Translations under genes and position numbers: made by a program
DNA from: a marine actinobacterium PHSC20C1
Lineage (GTDB): Bacteria; Actinomycetota; Actinomycetes; Actinomycetales; Microbacteriaceae
Length of the DNA: 64,000 nucleotides
Assembly: GCA_000153145.1 (NCBI GenBank)
Contig: CH672415.1
Span: 189,854 to 253,853 of the forward strand
Direction of reading: 5' to 3'
Shown here: positions 19,588 to 33,076 of the stretch, piece by piece
Layout: each line of letters starts with the position of its first letter
How positions within the stretch are numbered: position 1 is the first letter of the stretch
Notes under the pieces: model-generated
The model's database searches: none
The model's input: the letters and a program-made list of their open reading frames with translations, nothing else
What the model was told of the DNA's origin: nothing

Positions 19588-20784
19588 TTAGCGCGTCAGC
19601 AGCAGTGCATCACCCTGACCGCCACCACCGCACAGTGCGACGGCGGCACGGCCTGAGCCGCGTCGAGCGAGCTCATGAGCCGCGTGTACGACGAGTCGCG
19701 CACCTGATGCGCCGACGGGGTGGCCAATGGCGATTGCTCCACCGTGGATGTTTACGATGTCGTGGCTGAGCCCCAGTTCGGCGGTTGAGCGAAGGCTCAC
19801 GGCAGCGAATGCTTCGTTTATCTCGGCGAAGTCGAGGTCGCTAGCGCTCCAGCCAGCGTTCTCAAGTGCTGCAGCAATGGCGCGTGCAGGCTGCGAGTGC
19901 AATGAATTGTCGGGGCCAGCAACGTGACCCGAACGGTCGAGCACAGCAAGCCAAGTGAGCCCGTGCTCCTCGGCCCAAGCGCGGCTCGCCAGAATAACAG
20001 CGGAAGCTCCGTCGCTCAACGGTGACGAGTTCCCTGCCGTTATGGTGCCTTCTGGGTCGAACGCTGGGCGAAGACCTGCGAGAGTCTCGACGGTGGTGTT
20101 CGCGCGAACTCCCTCATCCGTGTCGATTACTAGGTCGTCGCCTTTGCGCTGGGGGATCGTTACTGGTGCAATCTCATCAACGAAAACACCGGCTTCGATC
20201 GCGGCGGCGGCGCGCTGATGGGAGGAGGCCGCGATCTCGTCTTGCTCTGTGCGACTAATCTTGAGCCGGCCGTTGTGGCGCTCGGTACTCGCCCCCATCG
20301 ACTCGGCATCGAAGGCATCTGTCAGAGCATCGTGGGCAGCGGTGTCGAGCGCTGAGACCGTTCCGTAAGCCCAGCCCATGCGGGATCCTGGAAGCACGTG
20401 CGGTGCGTTGGTCATTGACTCTTGGCCGCCGGCAGCAATTACGTTGGCTTCGCCGAGTCGGATGAGGCGTGCGGCATCCACTATGGCGGCGAGTCCAGAG
20501 AGGCAGACCTTATTTACCGTAACCGCGGGGGTTTTCCAGCCGATCCCTGCCGCAATAGCGCTCTGCCGTGCAGGGTTCTGGCCAGCACCAGCCTGAATTA
20601 CTTGGCCAAAGATCACTTGGTCGATGTCGTCTACGCTCACGCCGGAGCGTTCGACTGCCGCGCTGAGCGCGATCGCGCCGAGCTGTACCGCCGTGAGTGA
20701 TGCGAGTTGTCCGCGCAGTTTTCCTTGTGGGGTGCGTGTTGCGGAAAGGATTACTACATCGTTGGGTGCTGGGGTGTTGGCCAC
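19588..20784 (-). CDS. Acetyl-CoA acetyltransferase (thiolase)
   Basis: A 398-residue thiolase. GTG 20784 is chosen because GAGGAG lies 8 nt upstream and the protein then begins just before VVILSATRTP. The acyl-accepting Cys is in NKVCLSGL (about residue 89). The active-site motifs NEAFAAV, GGAIAIGHPVGASGAR and CGGGGQG are intact. It would cleave acetoacetyl-CoA to two acetyl-CoA, the last step after the CoA-transferase encoded in the divergent operon. The length and motifs fit biosynthetic/acetoacetyl thiolases; another 3-ketoacyl-CoA substrate is possible. Confidence 0.93.
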   Translation of the reverse strand: MANTPAPNDVVILSATRTPQGKLRGQLASLTAVQLGAIALSAAVERSGVSVDDIDQVIFGQVIQAGAGQNPARQSAIAAGIGWKTPAVTVNKVCLSGLAAIVDAARLIRLGEANVIAAGGQESMTNAPHVLPGSRMGWAYGTVSALDTAAHDALTDAFDAESMGASTERHNGRLKISRTEQDEIAASSHQRAAAAIEAGVFVDEIAPVTIPQRKGDDLVIDTDEGVRANTTVETLAGLRPAFDPEGTITAGNSSPLSDGASAVILASRAWAEEHGLTWLAVLDRSGHVAGPDNSLHSQPARAIAAALENAGWSASDLDFAEINEAFAAVSLRSTAELGLSHDIVNIHGGAIAIGHPVGASGARLVVHAAHELARRGSGRAAVALCGGGGQGDALLLTR

Positions 20785-20814
20785 TGTGCAAACTCCTCTA
20801 TTTGTGCGCCGTTG

Positions 20815-20843
20815 TTGACAGCGTGGTTGAGCAACCATAGGCT
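20815..20843 (+). promoter_or_regulatory. Consensus promoter TTGACA-N17-TAGGCT
   Basis: The -35 TTGACA (20815-20820) and -10 TAGGCT (20838-20843) are separated by exactly 17 nt and drive the transporter operon starting at 20912. This is the only near-consensus two-element promoter recognised in the window. Expected transcription start is near 20850. Confidence 0.75.
20824..20837. promoter_or_regulatory. Operator-like palindrome TGGTTGAGCAACCA
   Basis: A perfect inverted repeat (6-bp arms, 2-bp centre) fills the spacer between -35 and -10 and abuts the -10. A repressor bound here would block RNA polymerase. The TetR regulator encoded in the operon is the obvious candidate. Confidence 0.6.
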
Positions 20844-20849
20844 ACATGA

Positions 20850-20874
20850 AACCTGAACCGGGTCTCAGGTTCAG
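20850..20874. promoter_or_regulatory. Overlapping inverted repeats at the predicted +1
   Basis: CTGAACC (20853-20859) mirrors GGTTCAG (20868-20874), and AACCTGA (20850-20856) mirrors TCAGGTT (20865-20871). Both pairs have an 8-bp spacer. The element begins at the expected transcription start, so it may be a second operator or a 5'-leader RNA hairpin. Confidence 0.6.
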
Positions 20875-20911
20875 ATCACAATCCTCCTAAGGCAGCAGGA
20901 AAGGTCCCATC

Positions 20912-22102
20912 ATGCGGGTCAATAAAAAATACCTCGCTCCGGCGTTAATAGCGACGGTTGCACTCACTTTGGCGGGCTGTGCCCCCAGCGTCGACACCGG
21001 AACTGGCGGCGACGACCTCGCACCAGTCGACATCTCAATCATTACGTCCCAGACCGGTCCGCTTGCGGCCTACGGCGAGGCCTACCTCGCTGGCTTCGAC
21101 GCCGGCCTCGATTACGCCACTGACGGCACGGGCACCGTCGACGGTCGTGAACTCAATATTGAAATTACGGATGACGCCGGCGACGCCGATAAAGCAGTCA
21201 CCGCAGCGAAAGACGTGATCGGTCAAGGACAGAAGATCATCATCGGTACTGTCTCATCCGGAATCGCATTGGCACTGGCTGAGCAAGCTGAGCAGAACAA
21301 AGTTCTCTACATTTCGGGCCCCGCCGCGGCGGATGCCATCACCGGAGTCAACAACTACACCTTCCGTTCGGGACGTCAGAGCTACCAAGACGTCGCTACC
21401 GCGGGAACCTTTATCGGGGACCCAGCAGGCAAGTCGGTACTCGTCTTCGGTCAAGACACGGCGTTTGGCCAGGGCAACGTTGCCGCAGCTACCGCAGTTC
21501 TTGGCGGACAGGGCGCAGACGTGACGAGCTTGCTCGTTCCCGAAGATGCTACAGAGTTCACGCCATTTGCCCAGCAGATTGTTGACGCACAGCCAGACCT
21601 CGTATTCGTCGCCTGGGCTGGAGCAACTTCCGGCGCGATGTGGGAAGCACTCAGCCAACAGGGCGTCTTCGATAGTGTTCCTGTTGCAACAGGGCTCGGC
21701 GATGTCTCCACATACGGCGCGTACGGCCCCGCTAGCGACAAAATCAGCTTCCTCAACCACTACTTCGGCGGCGCAACTGACAATGACGCGAACTCAGCGA
21801 TGGTGAGCTACCTTGAGGCAGAGGGCAAGCAGGCGGACCTCTTCTCGCCGGATGGCTTCGTTGCCGCGCAGATGGTTGTTCAAGCAGTCCGTGAAGGCGG
21901 CGACGATGTCGACGCGATGATCGCAGCGCTTGAAGGGTGGACTTTTGACTCCGCAAAGGGATCGATCACAGTCCGTGCAGAAGACCACGCAATGATTCAG
22001 CCGATGTTCCAAGTGACTCTTGTCGCAGATGGCGACTCGTGGGTTCCTGAGCTGGTCACTGCGGTTGATGCTGACGCCGTAACCCCTCCCATCGCAGAGT
22101 AA
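20912..22102 (+). CDS. Branched-chain-amino-acid-type ABC substrate-binding lipoprotein
   Basis: A 396-residue type I periplasmic-binding-fold protein (Peripla_BP_6 / LivJ type). The ATG follows AGGAAAGG. The signal peptide ends in the lipobox LAGC (about residue 23). The mature N-terminus has the family start VDISIITSQTGPLAAYG. LivJ-like proteins bind branched amino acids but also amides, urea, aromatic and short organic acids. The operon context points to a ligand metabolised to acetoacetate rather than an amino acid. Seven nt separate it from the ATPase gene. Confidence 0.92.
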   Translation: MRVNKKYLAPALIATVALTLAGCAPSVDTGTGGDDLAPVDISIITSQTGPLAAYGEAYLAGFDAGLDYATDGTGTVDGRELNIEITDDAGDADKAVTAAKDVIGQGQKIIIGTVSSGIALALAEQAEQNKVLYISGPAAADAITGVNNYTFRSGRQSYQDVATAGTFIGDPAGKSVLVFGQDTAFGQGNVAAATAVLGGQGADVTSLLVPEDATEFTPFAQQIVDAQPDLVFVAWAGATSGAMWEALSQQGVFDSVPVATGLGDVSTYGAYGPASDKISFLNHYFGGATDNDANSAMVSYLEAEGKQADLFSPDGFVAAQMVVQAVREGGDDVDAMIAALEGWTFDSAKGSITVRAEDHAMIQPMFQVTLVADGDSWVPELVTAVDADAVTPPIAE

Positions 22103-22108
22103 GTAGCT

Positions 22109-22864
22109 ATGTCGAACCAGCCCGTGCTCACGGTCGAGCACCTTGCTCTGACGATCGGCGGTGCCGTCATCATTGATGACGTGTCACTGTCGGTCGCCAA
22201 GGGTGAAATGCTCGGCGTGATCGGTCCGAACGGGGCCGGAAAAACCACGCTATTCAACCTCATTTCTGGGGTGATGATTCCCACGACGGGAACCGTTGGC
22301 CTCGATGGTCGTGATGTCACAAATCAGACCATCGACTCGCGGGCCCGGGCTGGGCTCGGCAGGACTTTTCAAACATCTAGTCTCTTTCCGGCATTGAGCG
22401 CTCTCGAGAATGTGCGGCTGGCCGCTCAAGTAAAACTCGGCGGTGCTACCTCGGTGCTACGTTTCCCGCGGGCACACGATGAGGCCTCGACTATTTCCCG
22501 AGCACGACTCGACGAGGTCGGGCTCAGTCATCACAGCGAAACTGTCGCTGGCGTGCTCTCTCACGGTGACAAGCGCAAGCTAGAGATCGCGATGCTTTTG
22601 GCCACCGATCCAAGCGTCATCCTGCTCGACGAGCCCATGGCGGGGGTTGCGTCTGGCGATGTTGCCGGACTCACCGAGGTGATTCGCCAGGTGCACCATT
22701 CCGGTCGCACCGTACTGATGGTTGAACATCATATGGATGTCGTGCTCGGTCTGGTCGACCGCGTTGCGGTGATGCACCATGGCCAGTTACTCGCCTGTGA
22801 CACCCCGGATGCCGTGATGGCAGACGAAGCGGTGCAGAAAGCATATTTGGGGGCACCACTATGA
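22109..22864 (+). CDS. LivG-like ABC transporter ATPase
   Basis: A 251-residue ATP-binding subunit with Walker A GPNGAGKTT (about residues 41-49), a LivG-type signature LSHGDKRKLEIAM in place of the usual LSGGQ or LSYG, and Walker B VILLDEPMAGV. The 30-residue insertion after RTFQTSSLFPALSALENV is typical of LivG. It follows the binding protein by 6 nt and overlaps the LivF-like gene by 4 nt (ATGA). It energises the importer with LivF. Confidence 0.93.
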   Translation: MSNQPVLTVEHLALTIGGAVIIDDVSLSVAKGEMLGVIGPNGAGKTTLFNLISGVMIPTTGTVGLDGRDVTNQTIDSRARAGLGRTFQTSSLFPALSALENVRLAAQVKLGGATSVLRFPRAHDEASTISRARLDEVGLSHHSETVAGVLSHGDKRKLEIAMLLATDPSVILLDEPMAGVASGDVAGLTEVIRQVHHSGRTVLMVEHHMDVVLGLVDRVAVMHHGQLLACDTPDAVMADEAVQKAYLGAPL

Positions 22865-23580
22865 CCGAGTCGACGACTGCCGTCGTGACTGAGTCGATCC
22901 TGACGGTTTCCGATCTCAGCGCAAGCATTGACGGCCAGCAGGTCATTGAGTCGGTGAGTTTTGAGATGCTTCCCGTTGGAGTGACCGCGCTTCTGGGCCG
23001 CAATGGTGTCGGAAAGACGAGCACGCTTCGCGCCATCTTGGGTCTCATTGAACGATCCGGTGAGGTCACTGTTGCGGGGGAGCGAGTTGATCGCGAGCCC
23101 ACTCATCGCATTGTCCAACGTGGGGTCGGGTATGTTCCCGAGGATCGTGAAGTTTTTGCGTCACTCACGGTTGCAGAGAATCTTCGGCTTGCCGAGCGCG
23201 ACTCGTCGCCCAACCGCGCTCTGGTCGCGGAGCTCTTTCCCGATCTCACAGACCGTGCTGGCCAATTGGCTGGGACTCTCTCGGGCGGTCAGCAGCAGAT
23301 GGTGTCACTGGCTCGCGCGCTAGTGAACAACAACCAGGTTCTGTTAGTCGACGAACCGACAAAGGGGCTCGCGCCGCTCATTGTTATGGATGTCGCACGG
23401 GCACTGGAGCGTGCCGCGGAAACTGTCCCGGTGCTGCTTGTTGAGCAGAACCTTCAGGTAGTCCGGATGCTCGCCAAGAAGGCCATCGTGCTTGAGGGCG
23501 GTCGCGTTGTTTACGACGGCAGCGCAGAAGAGCTGCTCGGAAACGAAGCGCTGACTAAAGAATTGCTGGGGGTCGCGTGA
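22861..23580 (+). CDS. LivF-like ABC transporter ATPase
   Basis: A 239-residue second ATPase of the importer. Walker A is GRNGVGKTS (about residues 46-54), the signature is LSGGQQQMVSLARAL, and Walker B is VLLVDEPTKGLAP. RGVGYVPEDREVFASLTVAENL is the characteristic LivF Q-loop region. It is translationally coupled on both sides by 4-nt overlaps. Two different ATPases and two permeases complete a hydrophobic amino acid transporter-type importer. Confidence 0.93.
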   Translation: MTESTTAVVTESILTVSDLSASIDGQQVIESVSFEMLPVGVTALLGRNGVGKTSTLRAILGLIERSGEVTVAGERVDREPTHRIVQRGVGYVPEDREVFASLTVAENLRLAERDSSPNRALVAELFPDLTDRAGQLAGTLSGGQQQMVSLARALVNNNQVLLVDEPTKGLAPLIVMDVARALERAAETVPVLLVEQNLQVVRMLAKKAIVLEGGRVVYDGSAEELLGNEALTKELLGVA

Positions 23581-24452
23581 GCACCATAGTTCTTTTGCTG
23601 ATCACGGGCTTGGGCTTAGGGGCTCTGTACTTCTTGGTCGCATCCGGTCTTTCTCTGATCTACGGCCTTATGGGCGTCTTGAACTTCGCCCACGGTTCGT
23701 TTCTGACCCTTGGCGCGTTTGCCGGCTGGGAGTTAGCGAGACGGATGGGCGGCGAAAGCTGGGGCACACTCATCGCATCGCTACTGCTCGGAATGGTTGT
23801 TGGTGCACTAGTTGCTGCGGCAACCGAGTTTCTGCTCATTCGGCGACTGTATAACCGCCACATTGAGCAAGTGCTCGTGACCGTCGGCCTAGCTCTCGCC
23901 ACTGTTGCTCTCTTTGACGGCATTTGGGGTACCGATCCGATTTATGTCACCGCACCGCCATGGCTGTCTCACACCACTGAAATCCTCGGCGCTCGCGTTC
24001 CGAACGACCGCTTCTTGCTTATTGGGGCAGCTGTGCTCGTGCTACTCGGTATCGTTGCGTTCTTGCGGTACACGCGTTTCGGCTTGGTTATTCGCGCCGG
24101 CGTCGAGAACCGGTCAATGGTCACCGCGCTTGGCATTGATGTGCGCAAGGCATTCACCGTTGTCTTTGCGATTGGCGGCGCTGCAGCAGGTCTCGGCGGG
24201 GTGCTTGCCTCGCACTATTTCGGCTACGTTTCGCCACAGTTAGGCGGATCTCTGCTGATTTTCGCTTTCATTGTCACCGTGATTGGTGGTCTGGGTTCGC
24301 TCGCGGGGGCTGCGATTGCATCGGTAGCAGTGGCCATCCTGCAGCAGTTTGCTAACTACTTCTTGGGCGGCACTGGTGATCTGATGGTTGTTCTGTTGCT
24401 CGCTGTAGTGCTGTTGGTTCGCCCAACCGGAATTTTGGGGAAGAAGGCATGA
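23577..24452 (+). CDS. LivH-like ABC permease
   Basis: A 291-residue polytopic membrane protein with the LivH hallmark LNFAHGSFLTLGAF near residue 40 and about eight helices. The cytoplasmic coupling motif region includes ENRSMVTALGIDV. It starts at GTG overlapping livF (GTGA) and ends in an ATGA overlap with livM. It forms half of the translocation pore. Confidence 0.92.
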   Translation: MSTIVLLLITGLGLGALYFLVASGLSLIYGLMGVLNFAHGSFLTLGAFAGWELARRMGGESWGTLIASLLLGMVVGALVAAATEFLLIRRLYNRHIEQVLVTVGLALATVALFDGIWGTDPIYVTAPPWLSHTTEILGARVPNDRFLLIGAAVLVLLGIVAFLRYTRFGLVIRAGVENRSMVTALGIDVRKAFTVVFAIGGAAAGLGGVLASHYFGYVSPQLGGSLLIFAFIVTVIGGLGSLAGAAIASVAVAILQQFANYFLGGTGDLMVVLLLAVVLLVRPTGILGKKA

Positions 24453-25528
24453 AGTCGCTAACGAACCTCAGCCAGCGCACGTGGTGGATTGTCGGGGGCG
24501 CCTTCGTGGTGTTCGCCGCCATATTGCCGCTACTGAACATCTCAATTCCCGGCGTACTGCCGGGAGCCACCTATACTCCTGGCACGCTGCAGCTGTTGGC
24601 GCTGGCGCTCTTGTTTGCCTCACTGGCGCTTAGCTACCACTTGCTTTTCGGTACTGCTGGAATGCTCTCGTTTGGTCACGCGCTCTACTTCGCCCTCGGC
24701 GCGTACGGTCTCGGTATCGTTTTGCAGCAGACAGAACTCAGTCTGATTCCCGCGCTCGGGTTGACTCTCGCAATCGTGATCGCCGCCGCTTATCTCCTTG
24801 GTTCGTTGAGCTTGCGAGTCACCGGTATCTCTTTTGCAATGGTTACTCTCGCTTTCGCCCAAGCCGGTAACGTGCTTGTGCGGCGTAATCCGGCGATCAC
24901 TGGAGGTGAAGAGGGGCTGCGTCTCGACACAGAACATGTGCCTGACTTCTTCATAGGCGTAGTGAACACACGAAACCTTTATTGGCTCGCGCTAGCGCTT
25001 CTCGTCATCGTGTTTGTCGTCGTTGCCTCGTTTGAACACTCGCGTGCTGGCCATGCTGTTACCGCCACTCGTGAAAATGAACTGCGCGTTCGCGTTTTGG
25101 GTTTGCGCCCATTCGGAGTGAAGCTCATGGCATTCGTCATCGCCTCCGTGCTGGCATCACTCGTTGGTATGGTGCATCTGCTGTTGCAGAGCGGGACTAC
25201 TCCGCGGGCGACCTCCGCCGATTTCACGCTGACGATTTTGGTGATTGTTGTACTCGGAGGTGTCGGGTCGCGCTGGGGCGCCATCGTCGGTGGAATCATC
25301 TATACGCTGCTGGATCAGCGGCTGACCGCGCTCGCCGGGTCCGAAGCTATCGCCGACCTGCCGGCGGTTTTGCGTATTCCTCTCTCAGAACCGCTGTTTA
25401 TCTTGGGCACGCTGTTTATCCTTGTTGTGTTGTTCCTTCCCGGAGGAATTGCTGGTGCGGCGCGGCGCCTCTCGACAGGTACTCGTGCCACACCGCTCGC
25501 GCGCAAGCAGCTTGAGGAGGCGGAATGA
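24449..25528 (+). CDS. LivM-like ABC permease
   Basis: A 359-residue permease with the LivM motif GTAGMLSFGHALYFALGAYG (about residues 68-87), about ten helices, and the coupling segment ATRENELRVRVLGLRPF. Together with the LivH-like subunit it forms the transmembrane part. A 4-nt ATGA overlap joins it to the acyl-CoA ligase gene, which ties transport to the catabolic enzymes. Confidence 0.92.
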   Translation: MKSLTNLSQRTWWIVGGAFVVFAAILPLLNISIPGVLPGATYTPGTLQLLALALLFASLALSYHLLFGTAGMLSFGHALYFALGAYGLGIVLQQTELSLIPALGLTLAIVIAAAYLLGSLSLRVTGISFAMVTLAFAQAGNVLVRRNPAITGGEEGLRLDTEHVPDFFIGVVNTRNLYWLALALLVIVFVVVASFEHSRAGHAVTATRENELRVRVLGLRPFGVKLMAFVIASVLASLVGMVHLLLQSGTTPRATSADFTLTILVIVVLGGVGSRWGAIVGGIIYTLLDQRLTALAGSEAIADLPAVLRIPLSEPLFILGTLFILVVLFLPGGIAGAARRLSTGTRATPLARKQLEEAE

Positions 25529-27087
25529 GTCAGTCTGATGGGCTGCACACGCTCGGGAGGTGGACTGCTGATCGCGCCCTCGCCACGCCAGACAGAGTTG
25601 CTGTTGACGACCGTGGTGTCGTGCTCACGTACCGCCAGTTGGATGATCGCGCCAGTGCTCTAGCGGCGGCCTTCCTCGATGGGGGCTATGGTGTGGGCGA
25701 TCGCATCGCCACTATTACCGGAAACAGTTCAGACCACGTCGTCGTCTTCTTCGCCTGTGCCAAAGCGGGCCTCGTGCTGGTGCCGCTCTCATGGCGTCTC
25801 TCTCCGCGTGAGATCGCTCAACAGCTTGAGCAGGCAGATCCTGCCCTCCTGCTGGTCGAGGATGAGTTTTCAACGCTCGCCGCTTTGGCCGCTGACCGTC
25901 TCGTCGCACCCATCGCACGCGGAATTTTGGGAACTCACGGCATTGAGCGCGTCATTGTTGCCCCGCTGAGAAGTAGCTCACCTGTTCCAGAGCGTCGCGC
26001 TGTTCGTGATGAGGATGCCCTCCTCATCGTCTTTACTTCGGGAACTCTTGATCAGGCCAAGGGTGCAATCCTCAGCCACTCCAATTGCTTCTGGACGAAC
26101 CTTTCGCTCTCTCGCACGGCAGAAATCACAAGCGCAGACACCGTGCTTGCTGTCATGCCGCAGTACCACGTGGGTGGCTGGAATATTCAACCCTTGTTGG
26201 CCTGGTGGATGGGCGCGACAGTCGTACTCGAGCGCACTTTCGACCCCGCTCGCGTTCTGCAACTGATCGCTGATCGACGGATTACGACAATGATGGGCGT
26301 TCCCGCAAACTACCTGATCCTTTCGCAGCATCCGCGCTTCGCATCGAGTGATCTGTCTAGTCTCGCGCACGCCATCGTTGGCGGAGCTCCGATGCCAGAA
26401 CCACTGTTGCGGGTCTGGCACAGCCGGGGTGTTGCGCTCACTCAAGGCTATGGCCTTACAGAAGCAGCACCCAACGTACTGTGCCTTCCCGATGAAGAAG
26501 CTCGGGTTCGAATCGGCTCAGCTGGCAAGCCGTATCCGCACGTCGATGTCGACATTGCCGACCCCGTAACGGGAGAACGCATCGACGGCGCCGGTCAGGG
26601 CGAATTGCTCGTGAGTGGTCCAGGAGTCTTTAGCGGGTACTTCCGCGCGCCAGAAGCTACTGCGCTCGCACTCCGCGACGGCTGGCTCGCTACGGGCGAC
26701 CTCGTCAGCCGGGATGCCGAAGGTTACTACCGAGTGCTCGATCGCATCAAAGACATCTTCATCACTGGGGGAGAATCGGTTGCGCCCGCCGAAATCGAGG
26801 GTGTGCTTTTCGGTCACCCTGCTATCGCTGATGTCGCTGTTGTTGGGGTTCCCGACGAACAGTGGGGCGAGGTAGCAGTCGCGTGGGTTGTCGTGCGCTC
26901 AGGCGCTTCGACCGATGAAACTGACCTTCTCGACTTCGCACGGGCAGCCCTCGCCAAATTCAAAGTGCCGAAAAGGGTGATATTTGTCGAGGCGATCCCG
27001 CGATCATCGAGCGACAAAGTACGTCGGCGCGTATTGCTCGGCCAATGGACAGAACAGTCAGAACAACTAGGACGGATCAGTTCATGA
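25525..27087 (+). CDS. Acyl-CoA synthetase (AMP-forming)
   Basis: A 520-residue ANL-superfamily ligase. Motifs: a variant P-loop FTSGTLDQAKGA (about residues 170-180, Leu-Asp-Gln-Ala for the usual TGxPKG), GYGLTEAAP, ATGDLVSRDAEGYYRVLDRIKD, and a C-terminal SSSDKVRRR whose Lys matches the adenylation lysine while the usual Gly is Asp. It activates a carboxylic acid to its CoA thioester; the resemblance is to medium/long-chain or feruloyl-type ligases. No acyl-CoA dehydrogenase or hydratase gene is nearby, so a full beta-oxidation spiral is not encoded here. The substrate is unknown. Confidence 0.9.
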   Translation: MSQSDGLHTLGRWTADRALATPDRVAVDDRGVVLTYRQLDDRASALAAAFLDGGYGVGDRIATITGNSSDHVVVFFACAKAGLVLVPLSWRLSPREIAQQLEQADPALLLVEDEFSTLAALAADRLVAPIARGILGTHGIERVIVAPLRSSSPVPERRAVRDEDALLIVFTSGTLDQAKGAILSHSNCFWTNLSLSRTAEITSADTVLAVMPQYHVGGWNIQPLLAWWMGATVVLERTFDPARVLQLIADRRITTMMGVPANYLILSQHPRFASSDLSSLAHAIVGGAPMPEPLLRVWHSRGVALTQGYGLTEAAPNVLCLPDEEARVRIGSAGKPYPHVDVDIADPVTGERIDGAGQGELLVSGPGVFSGYFRAPEATALALRDGWLATGDLVSRDAEGYYRVLDRIKDIFITGGESVAPAEIEGVLFGHPAIADVAVVGVPDEQWGEVAVAWVVVRSGASTDETDLLDFARAALAKFKVPKRVIFVEAIPRSSSDKVRRRVLLGQWTEQSEQLGRISS

Positions 27088-27740
27088 GCACACCACTAAC
27101 AGCTCGCGGCACCCGCACCAAGACAAAATTAATTGAAGCGGCCGAAACCGTCTTTGCGCGCTACGGCTACACCGATGCCTCTGTTGTTCGCATTACGGAA
27201 GAGGCTGGCGTCGGTCAGGGTACGTTCTACCTCTACTTTTCAAGCAAGCTCGAGATCTTTGAAGAACTTGTTGAGGATCTGAATCGTCGCGTGCGTCGTG
27301 CCATGAGCGAGGCGTCAGCAGCAGCATCCACTCGCATCGAATCTGAGCGTGCAGGATTTCGGGCGTTCTTCGAATTCACTGCTGAACATCCTGCGCTCTA
27401 CCGTGTCGTCCGTGAAGCAGAATTTGTTTCACCCAAGTCGCTGCGATTGCACTACTCCCGCATCGTTGATGGCTACATCGAGGGCCTAAAAGAGGCACAA
27501 CTGCTTGGCGAGATCGGTGATGTCGACCCGACTGTTGCAGCGTGGGCGCTCATGGGAATTGGCGAAATGATCGGGATGCGGTGGGTGCTCTGGGGAGACT
27601 CGCCAGCAGCAGGCCACGACGCCGACCCGACCGCAAGCGGAACCTCGCGAGTTCCAGACGAAGTTCTCGATCAGATGATCACATTTATCCGCCGGGGTCT
27701 TGCAGTACCGGAGCCGCGCAGTGAGGGAGTCGAGAAGTGA
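27084..27740 (+). CDS. TetR-family transcriptional regulator
   Basis: A 218-residue regulator. ATG 27084 overlaps the ligase stop (ATGA), and an AGGACGG site lies upstream. The N-terminal helix-turn-helix (about residues 12-58) has AAETVFARYGYTDASVVRI and VGQGTFYLYFSSKLEIF, both typical of TetR. The C-terminal ligand-binding domain ends with a TetR_C-like amphipathic helix. Being inside the operon, it would be autoregulated. The inverted repeats at 20824-20874 are the best candidate targets, since none was recognised next to its own start. Confidence 0.92.
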   Translation: MSTPLTARGTRTKTKLIEAAETVFARYGYTDASVVRITEEAGVGQGTFYLYFSSKLEIFEELVEDLNRRVRRAMSEASAAASTRIESERAGFRAFFEFTAEHPALYRVVREAEFVSPKSLRLHYSRIVDGYIEGLKEAQLLGEIGDVDPTVAAWALMGIGEMIGMRWVLWGDSPAAGHDADPTASGTSRVPDEVLDQMITFIRRGLAVPEPRSEGVEK

Positions 27741-28483
27741 TCGACCTAACGGGCCGTCGAGCCCTTGTAACCGGTGGGGCAAGCGGGATCGGTGCCGCCT
27801 GCACCGTGTCGCTGGCGAACGCTGGAGCGCACGTGATCGTTGCGGATCTCAACGGGGAGGCGGCGAAAGCTCAAGCTGAGCTCGTCGGCGGGGAGGCGTG
27901 GCAGGTTGACCTGACCGATACGGCAGCGCTTGCCGATCTGTCACTCGACATCGACATTCTCGTCAACAATGCGGGTATCCAGCACGTGAGCCCGATCGAA
28001 AGTTTTGACCCGGCGATGTTCAGTCGCATTCTCGATCTCATGATTGAGGCTCCGTTCTTGCTCGTTAGGGCTGCACTTCCGCACATGTACGAGAGCAAGT
28101 TCGGTCGCATTATCAACATCAGCTCCGTTCACGGGCTGAGAGCGTCGCCTTACAAGTCTGCGTATGTGGCAGCCAAACACGCGCTTGAGGGTTTCTCTAA
28201 AGTCACCGCTCTGGAAGGAGGCGAACACGGCGTCACAAGCAATTGCGTTAACCCCGGCTACGTGCGCACGCCGCTCGTCGAGAAGCAGATTGCCGATCAG
28301 GCGAAGGTTCACGGCATCCCAGAGTCCGAGGTTATCGAGAAGGTCATGCTCACCGAGAGCGCGATCAAACGACTGCTAGAGCCAGAGGAAGTTGCCGACC
28401 TAGTGTTGTGGCTCGCCGGCGATACCGCGGGAATGGTTACCGGGGCTTCGTACACGATGGATGGCGGCTGGAGCGCACGATGA
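27737..28483 (+). CDS. bdhA: 3-hydroxybutyrate dehydrogenase (SDR)
   Basis: A 248-residue short-chain dehydrogenase with cofactor motif TGGASGIG, NNAG, and catalytic Ser130, Tyr143, Lys147 (YVAAK). The substrate residues known from Pseudomonas fragi D-3-hydroxybutyrate dehydrogenase all fall at a constant offset of 12: Gln82 (GIQHVSPIE), His132 (SVHGL), Lys140 and Gln184 are kept, and Trp187 is replaced by Tyr175. This makes oxidation of 3-hydroxybutyrate to acetoacetate a well-supported call. GTG overlaps tetR by 4 nt, and the downstream hydrolase overlaps its stop. The product would feed the CoA-transferase. Confidence 0.9.
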   Translation: MIDLTGRRALVTGGASGIGAACTVSLANAGAHVIVADLNGEAAKAQAELVGGEAWQVDLTDTAALADLSLDIDILVNNAGIQHVSPIESFDPAMFSRILDLMIEAPFLLVRAALPHMYESKFGRIINISSVHGLRASPYKSAYVAAKHALEGFSKVTALEGGEHGVTSNCVNPGYVRTPLVEKQIADQAKVHGIPESEVIEKVMLTESAIKRLLEPEEVADLVLWLAGDTAGMVTGASYTMDGGWSAR

Positions 28484-29388
28484 TGAAGCGATATCGCACC
28501 ATTTCCTGCCCTGTCGCCGGCGGAAAACTCACCGCAGCGCTGTGGGAGCCCGAGTTACCAGCGCTCGGCACCATCATGCTGGTTCATGGCATCACCGCGT
28601 CACACATGTCCTGGCCGCTCATAGCCGCAGCGTTTCCGCAGCACCGCGTGATCGCACCAGACCTGCGCGGTCGGGGGGCGAGTCGCACTCTTCCTGCTCC
28701 ATTCGGGATGCCGCAACACGCCGCAGACATTGACGCTCTATTTGACGCAACCGAGACGGCATCCGCACTCGTCGTCGGACACTCGATGGGTGGTTTCGTC
28801 GCCGCAACTTTTGCGGCGCAGCACCCGGAGCGCGTGTCTGGCCTCGTACTCATCGACGGTGGATTGCCAATCCCCGCGCCAGAGGGAACCTCGTTGGAAG
28901 AGTTGCCTCAAGTGATCTTGGGGCCCGCCGCAGAGCGACTGTCAATGACGTTCGCTGATCACGCTAGCTACCAGAATTTTTGGGCACAGCATCCGGCATT
29001 CGAGGGCGACTTCACCCAGGCAGTTCGTGACTACGTCGATTATGACCTTGTGGGTTCCGAGCCGCACTTGCACCCCGCAAGCAATATTGCCGCGGTCAGT
29101 TTTGACGCTCTCCAATTGAGCGGTGATACCCGGTATCGGGCGGCTCTCGACACGTTGAGCATGCCGGTGCACTTTATTCGGGCGCCGCGGGGTCTTCTCA
29201 ATCAGGTGCCAGCATTGTATTCTCCGGAACAGTGTGTCGATTGGCGGTCGGAGCTTCCTCATGTGAAGTTTCACGAGGCGCCGGATGTCAATCACTACAC
29301 AATTACTTTGGCGCAGCGCGGCGCAGACTTTGTTGCCGGCGTCATGGGTGAATTATTGGCGAATCAACCGCGGGAGGTCCGAGCGTGA
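28480..29388 (+). CDS. Alpha/beta hydrolase
   Basis: A 302-residue alpha/beta-hydrolase-fold protein. ATG 28480 overlaps the dehydrogenase stop (ATGA); a second ATG follows at once. The oxyanion segment is LVHGITAS, the nucleophile elbow is VGHSMGGF (Ser about residue 105), and a late His lies in DVNHYTI. No signal peptide, so it is cytoplasmic. In this operon it may hydrolyse an ester or oligomer of 3-hydroxybutyrate, or a related acyl ester, to free acid. That substrate is inference. Confidence 0.88.
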   Translation: MMKRYRTISCPVAGGKLTAALWEPELPALGTIMLVHGITASHMSWPLIAAAFPQHRVIAPDLRGRGASRTLPAPFGMPQHAADIDALFDATETASALVVGHSMGGFVAATFAAQHPERVSGLVLIDGGLPIPAPEGTSLEELPQVILGPAAERLSMTFADHASYQNFWAQHPAFEGDFTQAVRDYVDYDLVGSEPHLHPASNIAAVSFDALQLSGDTRYRAALDTLSMPVHFIRAPRGLLNQVPALYSPEQCVDWRSELPHVKFHEAPDVNHYTITLAQRGADFVAGVMGELLANQPREVRA

Positions 29389-30161
29389 GCATCGACAAGA
29401 CAGTGGGGTCGGCAGCGGATGCCGTCGCCGATATTCCGAACGGGGCATCCCTTGCCGTTGGAGGCTTCGGCCTCTGCGGCAACCCGATGGTCCTCATCCA
29501 AGCGCTACTTGAGTTGGGCTCTGACAATTTAAGTATCGTGAGCAACAACTGTGGTGTCGACGACTGGGGACTTGGCGTATTGCTCGGCGCTCGCCGCATC
29601 CGCAAGATGACGTCGTCGTATGTTGGCGAGAACAAAGAGTTTGAGCGCCAATTCTTGACCGGAGAGCTTGAAGTGGAGTTGACGCCGCAGGGCACCCTCG
29701 CAGAAAAGCTTCGTGCTGGTGGTTCTGGTGTTGCAGCTTTCTTTACCCAGACAGGTGTCGGAACTCAGGTAGCTGAGGGTGGGCTGCCGCGTCGCTATGA
29801 CGGCTCAGGTGGCGTCGCGATTGCCTCGCCCCAGAAGGAAGTTCGCACTTTTGACGTGAATGGCGCAGCCAAGGACTTCGTTCTCGAAGAGGCAATCACG
29901 ACAGACTTCTCACTCGTGCACGCGCTCAAGGGTGATCGCCACGGAAACCTGGTTTTTGCTAAGTCGGCCCGCAACTTTTCACCGCTTGCCGCGATGGCTG
30001 GTCGCATCTGTATTGCTCAGGTTGAAGAGCTAGTTGAACCGGGAGAGATTGAGCCGGATGCCGTGCACTTGCCTGGCGTCTATGTCACACGGGTAGTCGA
30101 GGTCGGTTCCGATGTCGAAAAGAGAATTGAACGTCGCACAGTGCAGAAGGAAGTGGCGTAA
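29385..30161 (+). CDS. scoA: 3-oxoacid CoA-transferase subunit A
   Basis: A 258-residue alpha subunit of a family I CoA-transferase, with the glycine-rich CoA-binding region [22 protein letters not shown] and [11 protein letters not shown]. It overlaps the hydrolase by 4 nt (GTGA) and its TAA shares one base with the scoB ATG. Family members transfer CoA from succinyl-CoA to acetoacetate (or 3-oxoadipate). Next to a 3-hydroxybutyrate dehydrogenase and a thiolase, acetoacetate is the likely acceptor. No aromatic ring-cleavage genes are present to support 3-oxoadipate. Confidence 0.92.
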
Positions 30162-30805
30162 TGGCTTTGACACGCGAAGAGATGGCGGCTCGTGCCGCAC
30201 TTGAGTTGGCCGATGGGTCGTATGTGAATCTTGGTATTGGGCTTCCGACGCTCGTGCCCAACTATGTGCCCGCTGGCCGAACAGTTGTATTGCAATCGGA
30301 GAATGGGATCCTGGGTGTTGGGCCGTATCCGACAGAGGAAAACGTCGATCCTGACCTGATCAATGCGGGTAAAGAAACGGTGACCACGCTTCCAGGCACC
30401 GCATTCTTCGATTCAGCCATGAGCTTTGGGATGATTCGCGGCGGCAAGATCGACGCGGCAATTCTTGGTGCGATGCAAGTCTCCGTGGCCGGCGATCTCG
30501 CCAATTGGATGATTCCCGGAAAGATGGTCAAGGGGCCTGGTGGCGCGATGGATCTCGTGCACGGTGCCGCTCGAGTAATCGTGCTCATGGAGCACGTCGC
30601 GAAAGACGGTAGCCCAAAGATCGTGAACGAGTGTTCGTTGCCGCTGACCGGTCGTGGTGTCGTTCACCGAATCATTACCGATCTTGCCGTGATCGACGTC
30701 ACTGATCACGGACTCGTCCTGCGCGAACTAGCTCCCGGCGTTGACGAAGCGACCGTTCGTGCAGCGACCGAACCCGAACTGATCGTCGAACTTACTGCCC
30801 CGTAG
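30161..30805 (+). CDS. scoB: 3-oxoacid CoA-transferase subunit B
   Basis: A 214-residue beta subunit. The catalytic glutamate lies in QSENGILG (about residue 47), the residue that forms the glutamyl-CoA intermediate in [19 protein letters not shown] and [10 protein letters not shown] are further family motifs. It starts on the last base of the scoA stop. Acting with ScoA it would yield acetoacetyl-CoA for the divergently encoded thiolase. Confidence 0.93.
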
Positions 30806-30828
30806 TTTCACCAACTAAAGGATTCACC

Positions 30829-31887
30829 ATGGCTACCCTTCTCGATGGCATTGTTCAGCACAGCGTCGCTACCCCGCGAATTGCCGCCTCCGTTCTCGAA
30901 CGACCGGCAGTGAACGCGACTTCGACAGTCGTATTCGTTCACGGCAACGTCTCATCGTCGCTCTTTTGGCAACCGGCGATGCTCAGCCTTGAGAGCGATG
31001 TGCGGGCCCTCGCGATCGACCTGCGTGGATTTGGCGACAGCGAAACGCTGCCGGTGGATGCCACAAGAGGCGTTCGAGACTTTTCTGACGACATCGCTTC
31101 TGTACTCGACTCGCTCGGCGTACAGCGCGCGAGCTTCGTCGGCTGGAGCATGGGAGGAGGTGTCGTTATGCAGTTCATGCTTGACCACGCCGAGCGTGTC
31201 GAGAGCGTCACTTTCGTTTCGCCTGTTTCTCCCTACGGCTTCGGCGGCACTAAAGGAGCTCACGGTGAACTGCTGGCTCCCGAATGCCCCGGCACGGGCG
31301 GTGGGGGAGCGAACCCAGACTTTATTGCCCAGCTCGACGCAGGCAATGCCGGTGACGATTCTCCGACATCCGCTCGCATGGTGTTTCGAACCGCCTATGT
31401 TGCTGATGCGACAGCGCACACCGAGCACGAGGACCTCTGGGTAGAGTCGATGCTCAGTACAGCAACAGGCGAAGACAACTACCCAGGTGATTCGGTTGCA
31501 GTGGATGCATGGCCCGGCTTTGGTCCTGGTAGTCGTGGAGTGCTCAACACGATGACACCCGACCACTTCGACGTGAGCGGAATCACCGAGTTGGCGAGCA
31601 AGCCACGCCTGCTCTGGATTCGCGGACTCAATGACGCCATTGTGTCGGATGCTTCTGGATTCGACCTCAACTTCTTGGGGCAACTGGGCGTAATTCCTGG
31701 CTGGCCTGGCGCCGAGATTGCGCCGCCACAGCCTATGATCGAGCAGACCCGCGCGGTCTTCGATCAGTACGCAGCAAACGGAGGCGAGTACACCGAACTT
31801 GCGTGGGAAAACTGCGGCCACTCGGCACACTTGGAGCGCCCGACAGAGTTCGTACAGGCACTGACTGCCCACCTCGCCGCACGCTAG
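30829..31887 (+). CDS. Alpha/beta hydrolase
   Basis: A 352-residue alpha/beta hydrolase preceded by AAAGGA, 23 nt after scoB and therefore probably the last gene of the operon. It has FVHGNVSSS, IDLRGFGDS, the nucleophile elbow GWSMGGG (Ser about residue 108) and a C-terminal ENCGHSAHLE carrying the catalytic His. An unusually long Gly/Pro-rich cap (about 140-235) may define a large substrate pocket. No signal peptide is seen. It is not a close duplicate of the hydrolase at 28480. Ester or oligoester hydrolysis upstream of 3-hydroxybutyrate is a reasonable guess, not shown. Confidence 0.88.
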   Translation: MATLLDGIVQHSVATPRIAASVLERPAVNATSTVVFVHGNVSSSLFWQPAMLSLESDVRALAIDLRGFGDSETLPVDATRGVRDFSDDIASVLDSLGVQRASFVGWSMGGGVVMQFMLDHAERVESVTFVSPVSPYGFGGTKGAHGELLAPECPGTGGGGANPDFIAQLDAGNAGDDSPTSARMVFRTAYVADATAHTEHEDLWVESMLSTATGEDNYPGDSVAVDAWPGFGPGSRGVLNTMTPDHFDVSGITELASKPRLLWIRGLNDAIVSDASGFDLNFLGQLGVIPGWPGAEIAPPQPMIEQTRAVFDQYAANGGEYTELAWENCGHSAHLERPTEFVQALTAHLAAR

Positions 31888-31915
31888 CGTTCCGCTGTTG
31901 TTCAGGAGTCGGCTC

Positions 31916-31921
31916 TAGACT
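31916..31921 (+). promoter_or_regulatory. -10 hexamer TAGACT of leaderless ispG mRNA
   Basis: TAGACT ends 6 nt before the GTG at 31928, with no ribosome binding site between. ispG thus has a promoter independent of the catabolic operon upstream. Confidence 0.55.
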
Positions 31922-31927
31922 GGAATA

Positions 31928-33076
31928 GTGCCAGCAATCAATCTCGGAATGCCGAAAGTCCCTGAAGTCCTCGCTCCTCGTCGCAAGACCCGGCAGATCA
32001 AGGTCGGTTCGATAGGGGTCGGCAGCGACTCGCAAGTCAGCGTGCAGTCAATGACGACTACGCAGACGACGAACATTGATGGAACTCTTCAGCAGATCGC
32101 CGAGCTGACAGCGTCAGGCTGCGACATCGTTCGTGTTGCCGTCCCTCATCAGGAGGACGCCGATGTATTGCACATCATCGCGAAGAAGAGCCAGATTCCT
32201 GTCATCGCAGACATCCACTTTCAGCCTCGTTACGTCTTCTCTGCGATCGACGCGGGAGTCGGCGCAGTTCGCGTAAACCCGGGAAACATCCGAAAGTTTG
32301 ACGACAAGGTTGGCGATATCGCCAAGGCGGCCAAGGACGCTGGCGTGAGCTTGCGCATTGGAGTCAATGCCGGTTCTCTCGAGCCAAGCCTTCTTCAGAA
32401 GTACGGCAAAGCCACAGCAGAGGCGCTTGTTGAAAGCGCCGTCTGGGAGGCGAGCCTCTTTGAAGAGCACGACTTCCACGACTTCAAAATTTCTGTCAAG
32501 CACAACGACCCCATCGTCATGGTCAAGGCGTATCGCATGCTCGCTGAGCGTGGCGACTGGCCGCTGCACTTGGGCGTAACAGAAGCCGGACCCGAGTTTC
32601 AGGGAACCATCAAGAGCGCCACAGCATTCGGCATCCTGCTCTCCGAGGGCATTGGTGACACGATTCGTGTCTCACTTTCCGCACCTCCCGTACAGGAGAT
32701 CAAGGTCGGATTGCAGATTCTGCAGTCGCTCAACCTGCGTGAGCGCAAGCTTGAGATCGTGTCGTGCCCCAGCTGTGGTCGGGCCCAGGTTGACGTCTAC
32801 AAGCTTGCTAATGATGTGACTGAGGGTCTAGAGGGAATGACCGTTCCTTTGCGAGTTGCCGTAATGGGCTGTGTAGTCAACGGCCCAGGCGAGGCTCGTG
32901 AAGCTGACCTCGGCGTCGCCAGCGGCAACGGCAAGGGTCAGATCTTTGTCAAGGGTGAAGTCATCAAGACGGTGCCTGAATCTGAGATCGTTGCGACGCT
33001 GATCGAAGAGGCAAACCGCATCGCCGCAGAGATGCCAGCTGGCGCCACTGGCAGCCCGCAAGTTCTCACGCCGTAG
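31928..33076 (+). CDS. ispG: 4-hydroxy-3-methylbut-2-en-1-yl diphosphate synthase (IspG/GcpE)
   Basis: A 382-residue iron-sulfur enzyme of the MEP pathway that reductively opens methylerythritol cyclodiphosphate to HMBPP. The N-terminal TIM-barrel part has [13 protein letters not shown] and RVNPGN. The [4Fe-4S] ligands are in [10 protein letters not shown] and [15 protein letters not shown]. In many actinobacteria it directly follows the M50 protease; here 12.4 kb of catabolic genes lie between, while proS follows at 18 nt as expected. Confidence 0.97.

What the first reader, a model, noticed from the sequence alone, without database searches (positions are those of the whole stretch)
19588..31887. 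A 12.3-kb 3-hydroxybutyrate/ketone-body catabolic block inserted between rseP and ispG
In many actinobacteria dxr, the M50 protease and ispG are adjacent. Here a thiolase, a complete LivJGFHM-type importer, an acyl-CoA ligase, a TetR regulator, a 3-hydroxybutyrate dehydrogenase with the diagnostic Gln/His/Lys/Gln residues, a two-subunit CoA-transferase and two alpha/beta hydrolases split them. The enzymes form the route 3-hydroxybutyrate to acetoacetate to acetoacetyl-CoA to acetyl-CoA. A dedicated importer plus hydrolases suggests scavenging of 3-hydroxybutyrate, its oligomers from bacterial polyester, or a related ester. I know of no described LivJ-type 3-hydroxybutyrate importer, so this may be new.
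Basis: partly seen in the sequence, partly recalled or inferred. Interest (0 to 1): 0.7.

Follow-up and report, generated by a model that had tools for sequence, protein, structure and literature searches.

The report
TetR-controlled importer operon for 3-hydroxybutyrate compounds
This is a real, self-contained gene set that probably imports a ketone-body compound or its short polyester pieces and burns it to acetyl-CoA; it recurs in many bacteria, but the substrate of its importer has not been measured.

Summary
The block is real: thiolase, complete LivJGFHM-type importer, acyl-CoA ligase, TetR, 3-hydroxybutyrate dehydrogenase (BDH; family cut-offs passed), ScoAB and two alpha/beta hydrolases lie where stated, in a Salinibacterium-like Microbacteriaceae genome. 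In 10 congener sites read as sequence rseP is followed directly by ispG, so the block is an optional insert. It is not private to this genome: 16 of 198 genomes drawn from the order carry the binding-protein gene.
Beyond adjacency: (1) all 16 carry a BDH gene, 12 within 10 kb; (2) distant relatives of the importer sit beside BDHs of other clades, once in an alphaproteobacterium; (3) hydrolase abh1 lies beside BDH in 19 of 19 loci with this importer and 0 of 40 with an MFS permease; (4) a palindrome at the importer promoter (20851-20870) recurs in 14 of 14 order-draw loci with the TetR gene and 0 of 2 without, and as a variant in alphaproteobacteria.
I read it as a TetR-controlled operon that imports a 3-hydroxybutyrate ester or oligomer (monomer not excluded), hydrolyses it inside and oxidises it. 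Enzyme families are well supported; ligand and regulation are inferred. New variant of a known kind.

The parts
19588..20838 (-). thl: acetyl-CoA C-acetyltransferase (thiolase), divergent from the operon; true start probably about 50 nt inside the longest ORF (inference)
   Evidence: Pfam/NCBIfam; the 44 solved chains at E <= 1e-80 are all named thiolases or acetyl-CoA acetyl/acyltransferases
20815..20843 (+). candidate promoter TTGACA-N17-TAGGCT, ending just before the operator
   Evidence: read by eye; similar layout by eye in many homologous upstream stretches; the consensus scanner did not list it, the -10 hexamer matching 3 of 6
20851..20870 (.). candidate TetR operator ACCTGAACCGGGTCTCAGGT (arms ACCTGA/TCAGGT)
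   Evidence: only exact match in the 2.77 Mb genome; near the SBP start with at most 2 mismatches in 14 of 14 order-draw loci with tetR (own included) and 0 of 2 without, and in 19 of 19 named loci
20912..22102 (+). SBP: lipoprotein substrate-binding protein, PF13458, RPA4397-like
22109..22864 (+). livG-type ATPase
22861..23580 (+). livF-type ATPase
23577..24452 (+). livH-type permease
24449..25528 (+). livM-type permease
25525..27087 (+). acyl-CoA ligase (AMP-binding); closest solved chains 8weu/8wev, fatty-acyl / feruloyl-CoA synthetase
27084..27740 (+). TetR regulator (nearest NCBIfam models ScbR type, FasR, Bacillus FadR, all below cut-off)
27737..28483 (+). hbd: 3-hydroxybutyrate dehydrogenase with the full residue signature
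28480..29388 (+). abh1: alpha/beta hydrolase (GHSMGG motif, NHY), at all 16 order-draw importer loci
29385..30161 (+). scoA: 3-oxoacid CoA-transferase A; with scoB the genome's only CoA_trans matches
30161..30805 (+). scoB: 3-oxoacid CoA-transferase B
30829..31887 (+). abh2: alpha/beta hydrolase closest to intracellular PHB depolymerase PhaZ of Bacillus thuringiensis (N-terminal third aligned)
   Evidence: organism of 8ynv

Best explanation
A TetR-controlled catabolic operon for an extracellular ester or short oligomer that yields (R)-3-hydroxybutyrate. Proposed steps: (1) the lipoprotein SBP binds the compound and the LivGFHM channel imports it [inferred]; (2) the cytoplasmic hydrolases abh1 (general partner) and abh2 (PhaZ-like, optional) release 3-hydroxybutyrate [inferred from linkage and family]; (3) BDH oxidises it to acetoacetate [family and active-site residues met, activity untested]; (4) ScoAB, or in relatives without ScoAB probably the ligase, makes acetoacetyl-CoA [family for ScoAB; inferred for the ligase]; (5) the divergent thiolase gives acetyl-CoA [family]. 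The TetR protein probably represses the importer promoter through the palindrome at 20851-20870 and is released by an acyl-CoA of the pathway [operator by comparative genomics; effector inferred]. No PHB synthase (PhaC_N) and no Esterase_PHB match was found in the genome, so the operon would serve scavenging, not its own stores.
For: Families and residues. Linkage when sampling by the SBP: 15 of 15 genomes with the SBP ortholog (58% identity or more) among 40 relatives carry hbd within 8 kb, against hbd anywhere in 7 of 25 without it; 16 of 16 in the order draw carry hbd, 12 of 16 within 10 kb (own, G025 and G037 are in both sets). In one of the four exceptions (G149) hbd lies at an MFS-type locus elsewhere. 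Recurrence: BDHs with the full signature lie near the importer in L168, L169 and the alphaproteobacterium Mariluticola and fall outside the actinobacterial BDH clade. Ester/oligomer: abh1 beside hbd in 19 of 19 ABC loci and 0 of 40 MFS loci; abh1 at 16 of 16 order-draw importer loci; other alpha/beta hydrolases directly after livM in 5 of 6 alphaproteobacterial plasmid loci read and directly before the SBP in the Chloroflexota locus; abh2 nearest to PHB depolymerase. Operator; in G007, where only ligase, tetR and hbd remain, it lies just upstream of the ligase. Own genome: no PhaC_N, no Esterase_PHB match. The SBP has Thr where a leucine-bound relative (4n0q) has Glu; that this Glu holds the amino group is recalled.
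Against: No ligand or activity was measured. After RPA4397 the next six structural rows of the SBP are, as far as their titles tell, aromatic-acid binders, and the ligase is nearest an entry named fatty-acyl / feruloyl-CoA synthetase. Four of 16 order-draw loci lack hbd at the locus (L133, L141, L143, L144); L144 has an ornithine-cyclodeaminase-like gene (named from its sequence by recall) after abh1. At phylum level abh1 passes my criteria in 2 of 5 loci (L166, L167), with a partial match in L168, and 8 of 21 hbd loci with neither transporter still carry abh1. abh2 is well below the PhaZ family cut-off (105.7 vs 300) and aligned over one third of its length. The alphaproteobacterial hydrolases are only generic relatives of abh1. 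Four of six alphaproteobacterial loci have no BDH but an enoyl-CoA hydratase, ligase and MaoC protein (families checked for L157 and the MaoC of L158), one (Haematobacter) other beta-oxidation genes. tetR is present without a site in L167 and L170, and with one mismatch allowed the operator pattern is no commoner in the genome than its reversed control (3 vs 6). The ABC/MFS labels are clustered on the tree, so the 59 loci are not independent.
Confidence: 0.5

Rival explanations
1. The importer takes free (R)-3-hydroxybutyrate; the hydrolases act on other things, for example as thioesterases or on internal oligomers.
For: hbd is within 10 kb of the SBP in 12 of 16 order-draw genomes; importer and MFS permease look like alternatives beside the same BDH family; L169 has importer plus BDH and no abh1 match; abh1's best structural match is a thioesterase domain.
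Against: abh1 in 19 of 19 ABC and 0 of 40 MFS loci; the four order-draw importer loci without hbd still have abh1 (L133, L141, L143, L144).
Confidence: 0.25
2. The route serves another 3-hydroxy or 3-oxo acid (for example a C5 or branched acid), and BDH, ScoAB and thiolase are used with a wider range.
For: The ScoAB models also cover PcaIJ by name; alphaproteobacterial loci combine ligase, enoyl-CoA hydratase and MaoC, a beta-oxidation kit; SBPs of this type in R. palustris bound fatty, dicarboxylic and aromatic acids (PMC3223731, passages).
Against: The BDH signature incl. the C-terminal Trp is kept in 91 of 91, the 13 best solved chains are hydroxybutyrate dehydrogenases and the thiolase is nearest acetyl-CoA acetyltransferases.
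Confidence: 0.17
3. The importer is for an unrelated carboxylate (aromatic or amino acid) and shares an operon with ketone-body genes without functional link.
For: Structural neighbours after RPA4397 bind aromatic acids, urea or leucine; ligase nearest an entry named fatty-acyl / feruloyl-CoA synthetase.
Against: Linkage to BDHs of separate clades; relocated copies keep importer and BDH genes together (G023, G014); no ring-cleavage or crotonase-type gene among the block's genes.
Confidence: 0.08

Closest known systems
LivJGFHM-type (HAAT) branched-chain amino acid importers
   Same: five subunits, family matches for all, fold of the SBP
   Different: the SBP is far below the cut-offs of the amino-acid and urea models it matches (61 vs 477, 43.5 vs 492.75, 35.1 vs 494.8); Thr at the place of a Glu of a leucine-bound relative
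RPA4397 of Rhodopseudomonas palustris (PDB 3n0x; 3nnd is a near-identical entry)
   Same: closest solved SBP, 33% identity, E 6.2e-62 with the profile
   Different: ligand not stated; its gene context was not available here
Aromatic- and fatty-acid-binding SBPs of R. palustris (PMC3223731; outline, found passages and part 1 of section 8 read)
   Same: LivJ-type proteins, several next to CoA-ligase pathways, that bind carboxylic acids
   Different: 19-23% identity to the solved ones in the top rows; different pathway genes
Bacterial ketone-body route BDH-ScoAB-thiolase
   Same: all enzymes of the route; ScoAB beside BDH also in Eleftheria
   Different: among 80 named BDH loci 40 have an MFS permease with LysR and 21 neither transporter by my criteria; 19 have this ABC importer with hydrolase and TetR
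bhbP, annotated D-beta-hydroxybutyrate permease of Pseudomonas putida (PMC6296734, two table passages seen)
   Same: annotated for the same compound
   Different: named a permease; its family was not examined here
Intracellular PHB depolymerase PhaZ of Bacillus thuringiensis (8ynv)
   Same: nearest solved chain to abh2
   Different: local match of 110 residues, far below the family cut-off; genome has no PHB synthase match

Membership tests
3-hydroxybutyrate dehydrogenase (TIGR01963 / PRK12429) | score above curated cut-off | tested here: met
   318.2 vs 307.05 and 281.6 vs 258; a third model, PRK13394, is not reached (245.8 vs 340)
3-hydroxybutyrate dehydrogenase (TIGR01963 / PRK12429) | substrate and catalytic residues Gln94, Ser142, His144, Lys152, Tyr155, Lys159, Gln196, Trp257 (numbering recalled) | tested here: met
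   identical in 91 of 91 aligned sequences; position 187 is Tyr in all 91, Trp being recalled for Pseudomonas fragi
3-hydroxybutyrate dehydrogenase (TIGR01963 / PRK12429) | activity on (R)-3-hydroxybutyrate | not testable with these tools
   needs enzyme assay
ScoAB 3-oxoacid CoA-transferase | both subunits above subfamily cut-offs | tested here: met
   TIGR02429 231.2 vs 128.5, TIGR02428 325.2 vs 243.55; the models also cover PcaIJ by name
LivJGFHM-type importer | SBP, two ATPases, two permeases together | tested here: met
Branched-chain amino acid (LivJ) or urea (UrtA) transporter | SBP above the curated cut-off | tested here: not met
   61 vs 477 and 43.5 vs 492.75
Intracellular scl-PHA depolymerase (NF050089) | abh2 above the curated cut-off | tested here: not met
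   105.7 vs 300; best of its matches all the same
Intracellular scl-PHA depolymerase (NF050089) | PHB granule or oligomer hydrolysis | not testable with these tools
   needs assay
TetR-regulated operon | conserved palindrome at the promoter that tracks the regulator | tested here: met
   with the tetR match: 19 of 19 named loci, 14 of 14 order-draw loci (own included), 4 of 4 plasmid loci, 1 of 3 phylum loci; without it: 0 of 2, 0 of 4, 0 of 2
TetR-regulated operon | binding of the TetR protein to the site | not testable with these tools
   needs gel shift or reporter

The most novel reading that the evidence does not exclude
A cross-phylum family of LivJ-type importers, paired with an intracellular alpha/beta hydrolase and, in many, with an acyl-CoA ligase and an orthologous TetR that reads one palindrome in Actinomycetota and Alphaproteobacteria, is dedicated to uptake of (R)-3-hydroxybutyrate esters or oligomers released from other organisms' polyester. 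Two chemistries would follow: dehydrogenation first (BDH, then ScoAB or ligase) in Actinomycetota and Mariluticola, or CoA ligation first with MaoC and enoyl-CoA hydratase inverting the hydroxyl in Rhodobacterales and Hyphomicrobiales.
Probability: 0.3. Interest if true: 0.65.

Novelty: new variant of a known kind. Interest (0 to 1): 0.48.

Why it matters
How bacteria take up the products of polyester breakdown is, to my knowledge, poorly worked out. In the held library, searches returned no paper whose listing describes an ABC importer for 3-hydroxybutyrate or its oligomers; of the papers listed I looked at passages of three (PMC12542648, PMC13289028, PMC6296734), which describe none in the passages shown. 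The library lacks most subscription journals. The operon gives a testable candidate with its regulator and operator, natural variants (with and without BDH, ScoAB or ligase), and perhaps a better name for proteins now called branched-chain amino acid transporters.

Tried and rejected
Considered and dropped: (a) recent foreign island: G+C is that of the flanks, no tRNA in the window; the block sits beside rseP and/or ispG in several Microbacteriaceae, so an old, repeatedly lost and moved block fits better. (b) Mobilisation of own PHB: no PhaC_N match in the genome (of 14 control genomes it rings in Caulobacter). (c) A secreted Esterase_PHB-type depolymerase feeding the importer: no match; other depolymerase types were not searched. 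(d) 3-oxoadipate route: abh1 resembles PcaD only weakly (60.3 vs 255.85 bits). (e) Strict rule 'importer always with BDH': false, 4 of 16 loci lack it. (f) abh1 as a member of a named hydrolase class: none of the 25 best NCBIfam matches reaches its cut-off, and the structure search returns thioesterases, esterases and other hydrolases.

Weak points of the counts: the 80 named loci were found through BDH, are capped at 80 of at least 571 relatives, and are not independent. In one search the class 'none' (21 loci) holds truncated loci (e.g. L104) and five with LysR where the MFS gene may have been missed. L030 has both the importer block and an MFS/LysR pair; it counts as ABC because the MFS gene lies more than 3 kb from hbd. 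abh2 is at 10 of 19 importer loci by distance from hbd and 11 of 19 anywhere in the locus. In the tree own-genome fragments, L125 (same as L033) and most of L146-L154 (repeats of loci already held) were left out; it is a quick tree with long outer rows, and the program warns that their places are unsure. Of 15 plasmid records with an SBP match I read the first 8. ORF calls by length were unreliable in high-G+C DNA and were replaced by tblastn. The shuffles keep single-base composition only.

Full report
What is there. The window comes from a 2.77-Mb genome in one contig. The nearest named records for the BDH gene are Salinibacterium sp. PAMC 21357 and SWN167, 92 and 90%, so it is a Salinibacterium-like member of the Microbacteriaceae. 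Between the M50 protease (rseP, ends 19525) and ispG (31928) lie a divergent thiolase and a run of twelve + strand genes: SBP, livG, livF, livH, livM, ligase, tetR, hbd, abh1, scoA, scoB, abh2, with overlapping or closely spaced ends.

Enzymes. The BDH passes two curated cut-offs; its 13 best rows among solved chains are hydroxybutyrate dehydrogenases, and the nine positions checked are the same in all 91 sequences aligned. ScoA and ScoB pass their subfamily cut-offs and are the only two CoA_trans matches of the genome. The thiolase is one of three Thiolase_C matches and is nearest to acetyl-CoA acetyltransferases. The chain from 3-hydroxybutyrate to acetyl-CoA is therefore complete by family; no activity was tested.

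Insert or not. Among 24 congeners and the own genome, 13 hold the SBP ortholog (76% identity or more). In 11 it lies at ispG: own, G003 and G013 were read as sequence with rseP on the other side, the other eight are placed only by an SBP-to-ispG distance of about 11 kb. In G014 and G023 it lies elsewhere while rseP and ispG touch. Twelve have no ortholog; of these, eight were read at the site and have rseP followed by ispG, G007 has a remnant (ligase, tetR, hbd), and three (G002, G015, G018) were not read. The gap in the ten empty sites is 16-88 nt. Named Agromyces, Terrimesophilobacter, Protaetiibacter and other Microbacteriaceae also have the block near rseP or ispG; Microbacterium, Demequina, Nocardioides and Arthrobacter hankyongi have it with no rseP or ispG match in the stretch held. 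So the insertion is real, probably old, and optional.

Does the importer belong to the BDH? Sampling by the SBP avoids the bias of sampling by BDH. Among 40 relatives (own included), 15 have an SBP ortholog (58% or more) and all 15 have hbd within 8 kb; of the 25 others, 7 have hbd at all (E up to 1e-60). In an even draw of 198 genomes of the order, 16 have the SBP at E 1e-90; all 16 have an hbd match at E 1e-50, 12 within 10 kb. Own, G025 and G037 are in both sets. Of the four exceptions, G149's hbd lies at an MFS-type locus. Further away, in 396 genomes of the phylum, 9 have the SBP at E 1e-60, five of them not seen before: L168 and L169 have BDH genes nearby with the whole signature, L166, L167 and L170 show no hbd match in the stretch held. 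On plasmids, 15 records match the SBP and the first 8 were read: Mariluticola halotolerans, an alphaproteobacterium, has a BDH directly before SBP-livGFHM-hydrolase; none of the other seven shows a BDH with the signature. On the tree the BDHs of L168, L169 and Mariluticola lie outside the actinobacterial clade (branch 99, starred), with plasmid BDHs of Deinococcota and Pseudomonadota; these rows are long and the tree is of the quick kind, so exact places are unsure. The importer thus appears to have met BDH genes more than once.

Ester or monomer? In the 80 named BDH loci, 19 have the importer block, 40 an MFS permease with a divergent LysR gene, 21 neither by my criteria. abh1 lies beside hbd in 19 of 19, 0 of 40 and 8 of 21. 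In the order draw abh1 is at 16 of 16 importer loci, also at the four where hbd is absent. In the five new phylum loci it passes my criteria at two (L166, L167), with a partial match in L168. Five of six alphaproteobacterial plasmid loci have an alpha/beta hydrolase directly after livM and the Chloroflexota locus has one directly before the SBP, though these are only generic relatives of abh1. abh2, found in 11 of 19 named importer loci, is nearest to PhaZ of Bacillus thuringiensis. I conclude that the transported compound is probably hydrolysed inside the cell; a 3-hydroxybutyrate oligomer or ester is the simplest candidate. This is inference; abh1 as a thioesterase is not excluded, its best structural match being a thioesterase domain.

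The binding protein. The model is good apart from the signal region (pLDDT 85.9). The closest solved protein is RPA4397 (33% identity), then aromatic-acid binders. The alignment puts Thr239 where a leucine-bound Brucella homologue has Glu; that this Glu binds the amino group is recalled from LivJ structures. A carboxylate without an alpha-amino group is therefore likely. PMC3223731 (outline, found passages and the first part of section 8 read) reports that very few of 22 non-matching R. [quoted passage not shown] its main text does not hold the words RPA4397 or hydroxybut-.

The regulator. A palindrome, ACCTGA-N8-TCAGGT, stands at 20851-20870, just after a TTGACA-N17-TAGGCT promoter-like pair and before the SBP. 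It has one exact match in the genome; with one mismatch allowed there are three places, and the reversed control pattern gives six, so only the exact site stands out. Near the SBP start, with at most two mismatches, it is found in 14 of 14 order-draw loci that have tetR (own included) and in neither of the two that lack it, and in 19 of 19 named importer loci. In G007, which kept only ligase, tetR and hbd, it stands just upstream of the ligase. In the four alphaproteobacterial loci that have a tetR match (38-45% identical to the window's) a variant (left arm ACATGA in 6 of 7 sites, right arm TCATGT in 5 of 7) stands before the SBP and, in the three where tetR is on the other strand, before tetR too; the four plasmid loci without a tetR match have none before the SBP. 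Shuffled upstream stretches of these four reached the observed match in 0, 0, 0 and 4 of 500 (L157, L158, L159, L160). At phylum level L168 has an exact site, L167 and L170 have tetR but no site. The nearest TetR models (ScbR type, FasR, Bacillus FadR) are all below their cut-offs.

Source of the substrate. The genome has no PhaC_N and no Esterase_PHB match, so scavenging of compounds made or released by others is the likely role.

Literature. Searches were made. Passages were read in PMC3223731, PMC12542648, PMC13289028 and PMC6296734; the rest were seen as listings. The passages of PMC6296734 name an annotated D-beta-hydroxybutyrate permease, bhbP, of Pseudomonas putida. None of what I saw describes an ABC importer for 3-hydroxybutyrate or its oligomers.

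Verdict. A good case for a new variant of a known kind of catabolic operon; interest moderate.

Noticed in passing
31887-31930: ispG starts 40 nt after abh2 and keeps a TAG(A/G)CT-like element a few bases before its GTG, as in several empty sites of congeners (by eye); this may be its own leaderless promoter and may explain why inserts are tolerated there.
   Followed up: partly
L112:3679-6740: Congener G007 has a remnant block, only ligase, tetR and hbd between rseP and ispG, with the operator just upstream of the ligase.
   Followed up: partly
L030:14265-15782: A Microbacteriaceae MAG carries both the importer block and an MFS/LysR pair before ispG.
   Followed up: no
L160:8435-8454: In Hoeflea sp. 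IMCC20628 a third copy of the operator variant lies before a second, divergent LivJ-type importer, so the TetR regulon may hold two importers.
   Followed up: no
L144:14770-15711: The importer-abh1 operon of G040 continues with an ornithine-cyclodeaminase-like gene (named by recall) and a second pair of LivG/LivF-like ATPases; no tetR match and no operator.
   Followed up: partly
L170:9590-10210: In G336 the SBP reading has an in-frame stop and livG, livF and livH were not detected: perhaps a decaying copy.
   Followed up: no
L053, L068, L081, L091, L092, L094, L101, L103, L104, L138, L140: In Microbacterium and two unnamed family members an IclR-type regulator gene sits between abh1 and scoA on the opposite strand.
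   Followed up: no
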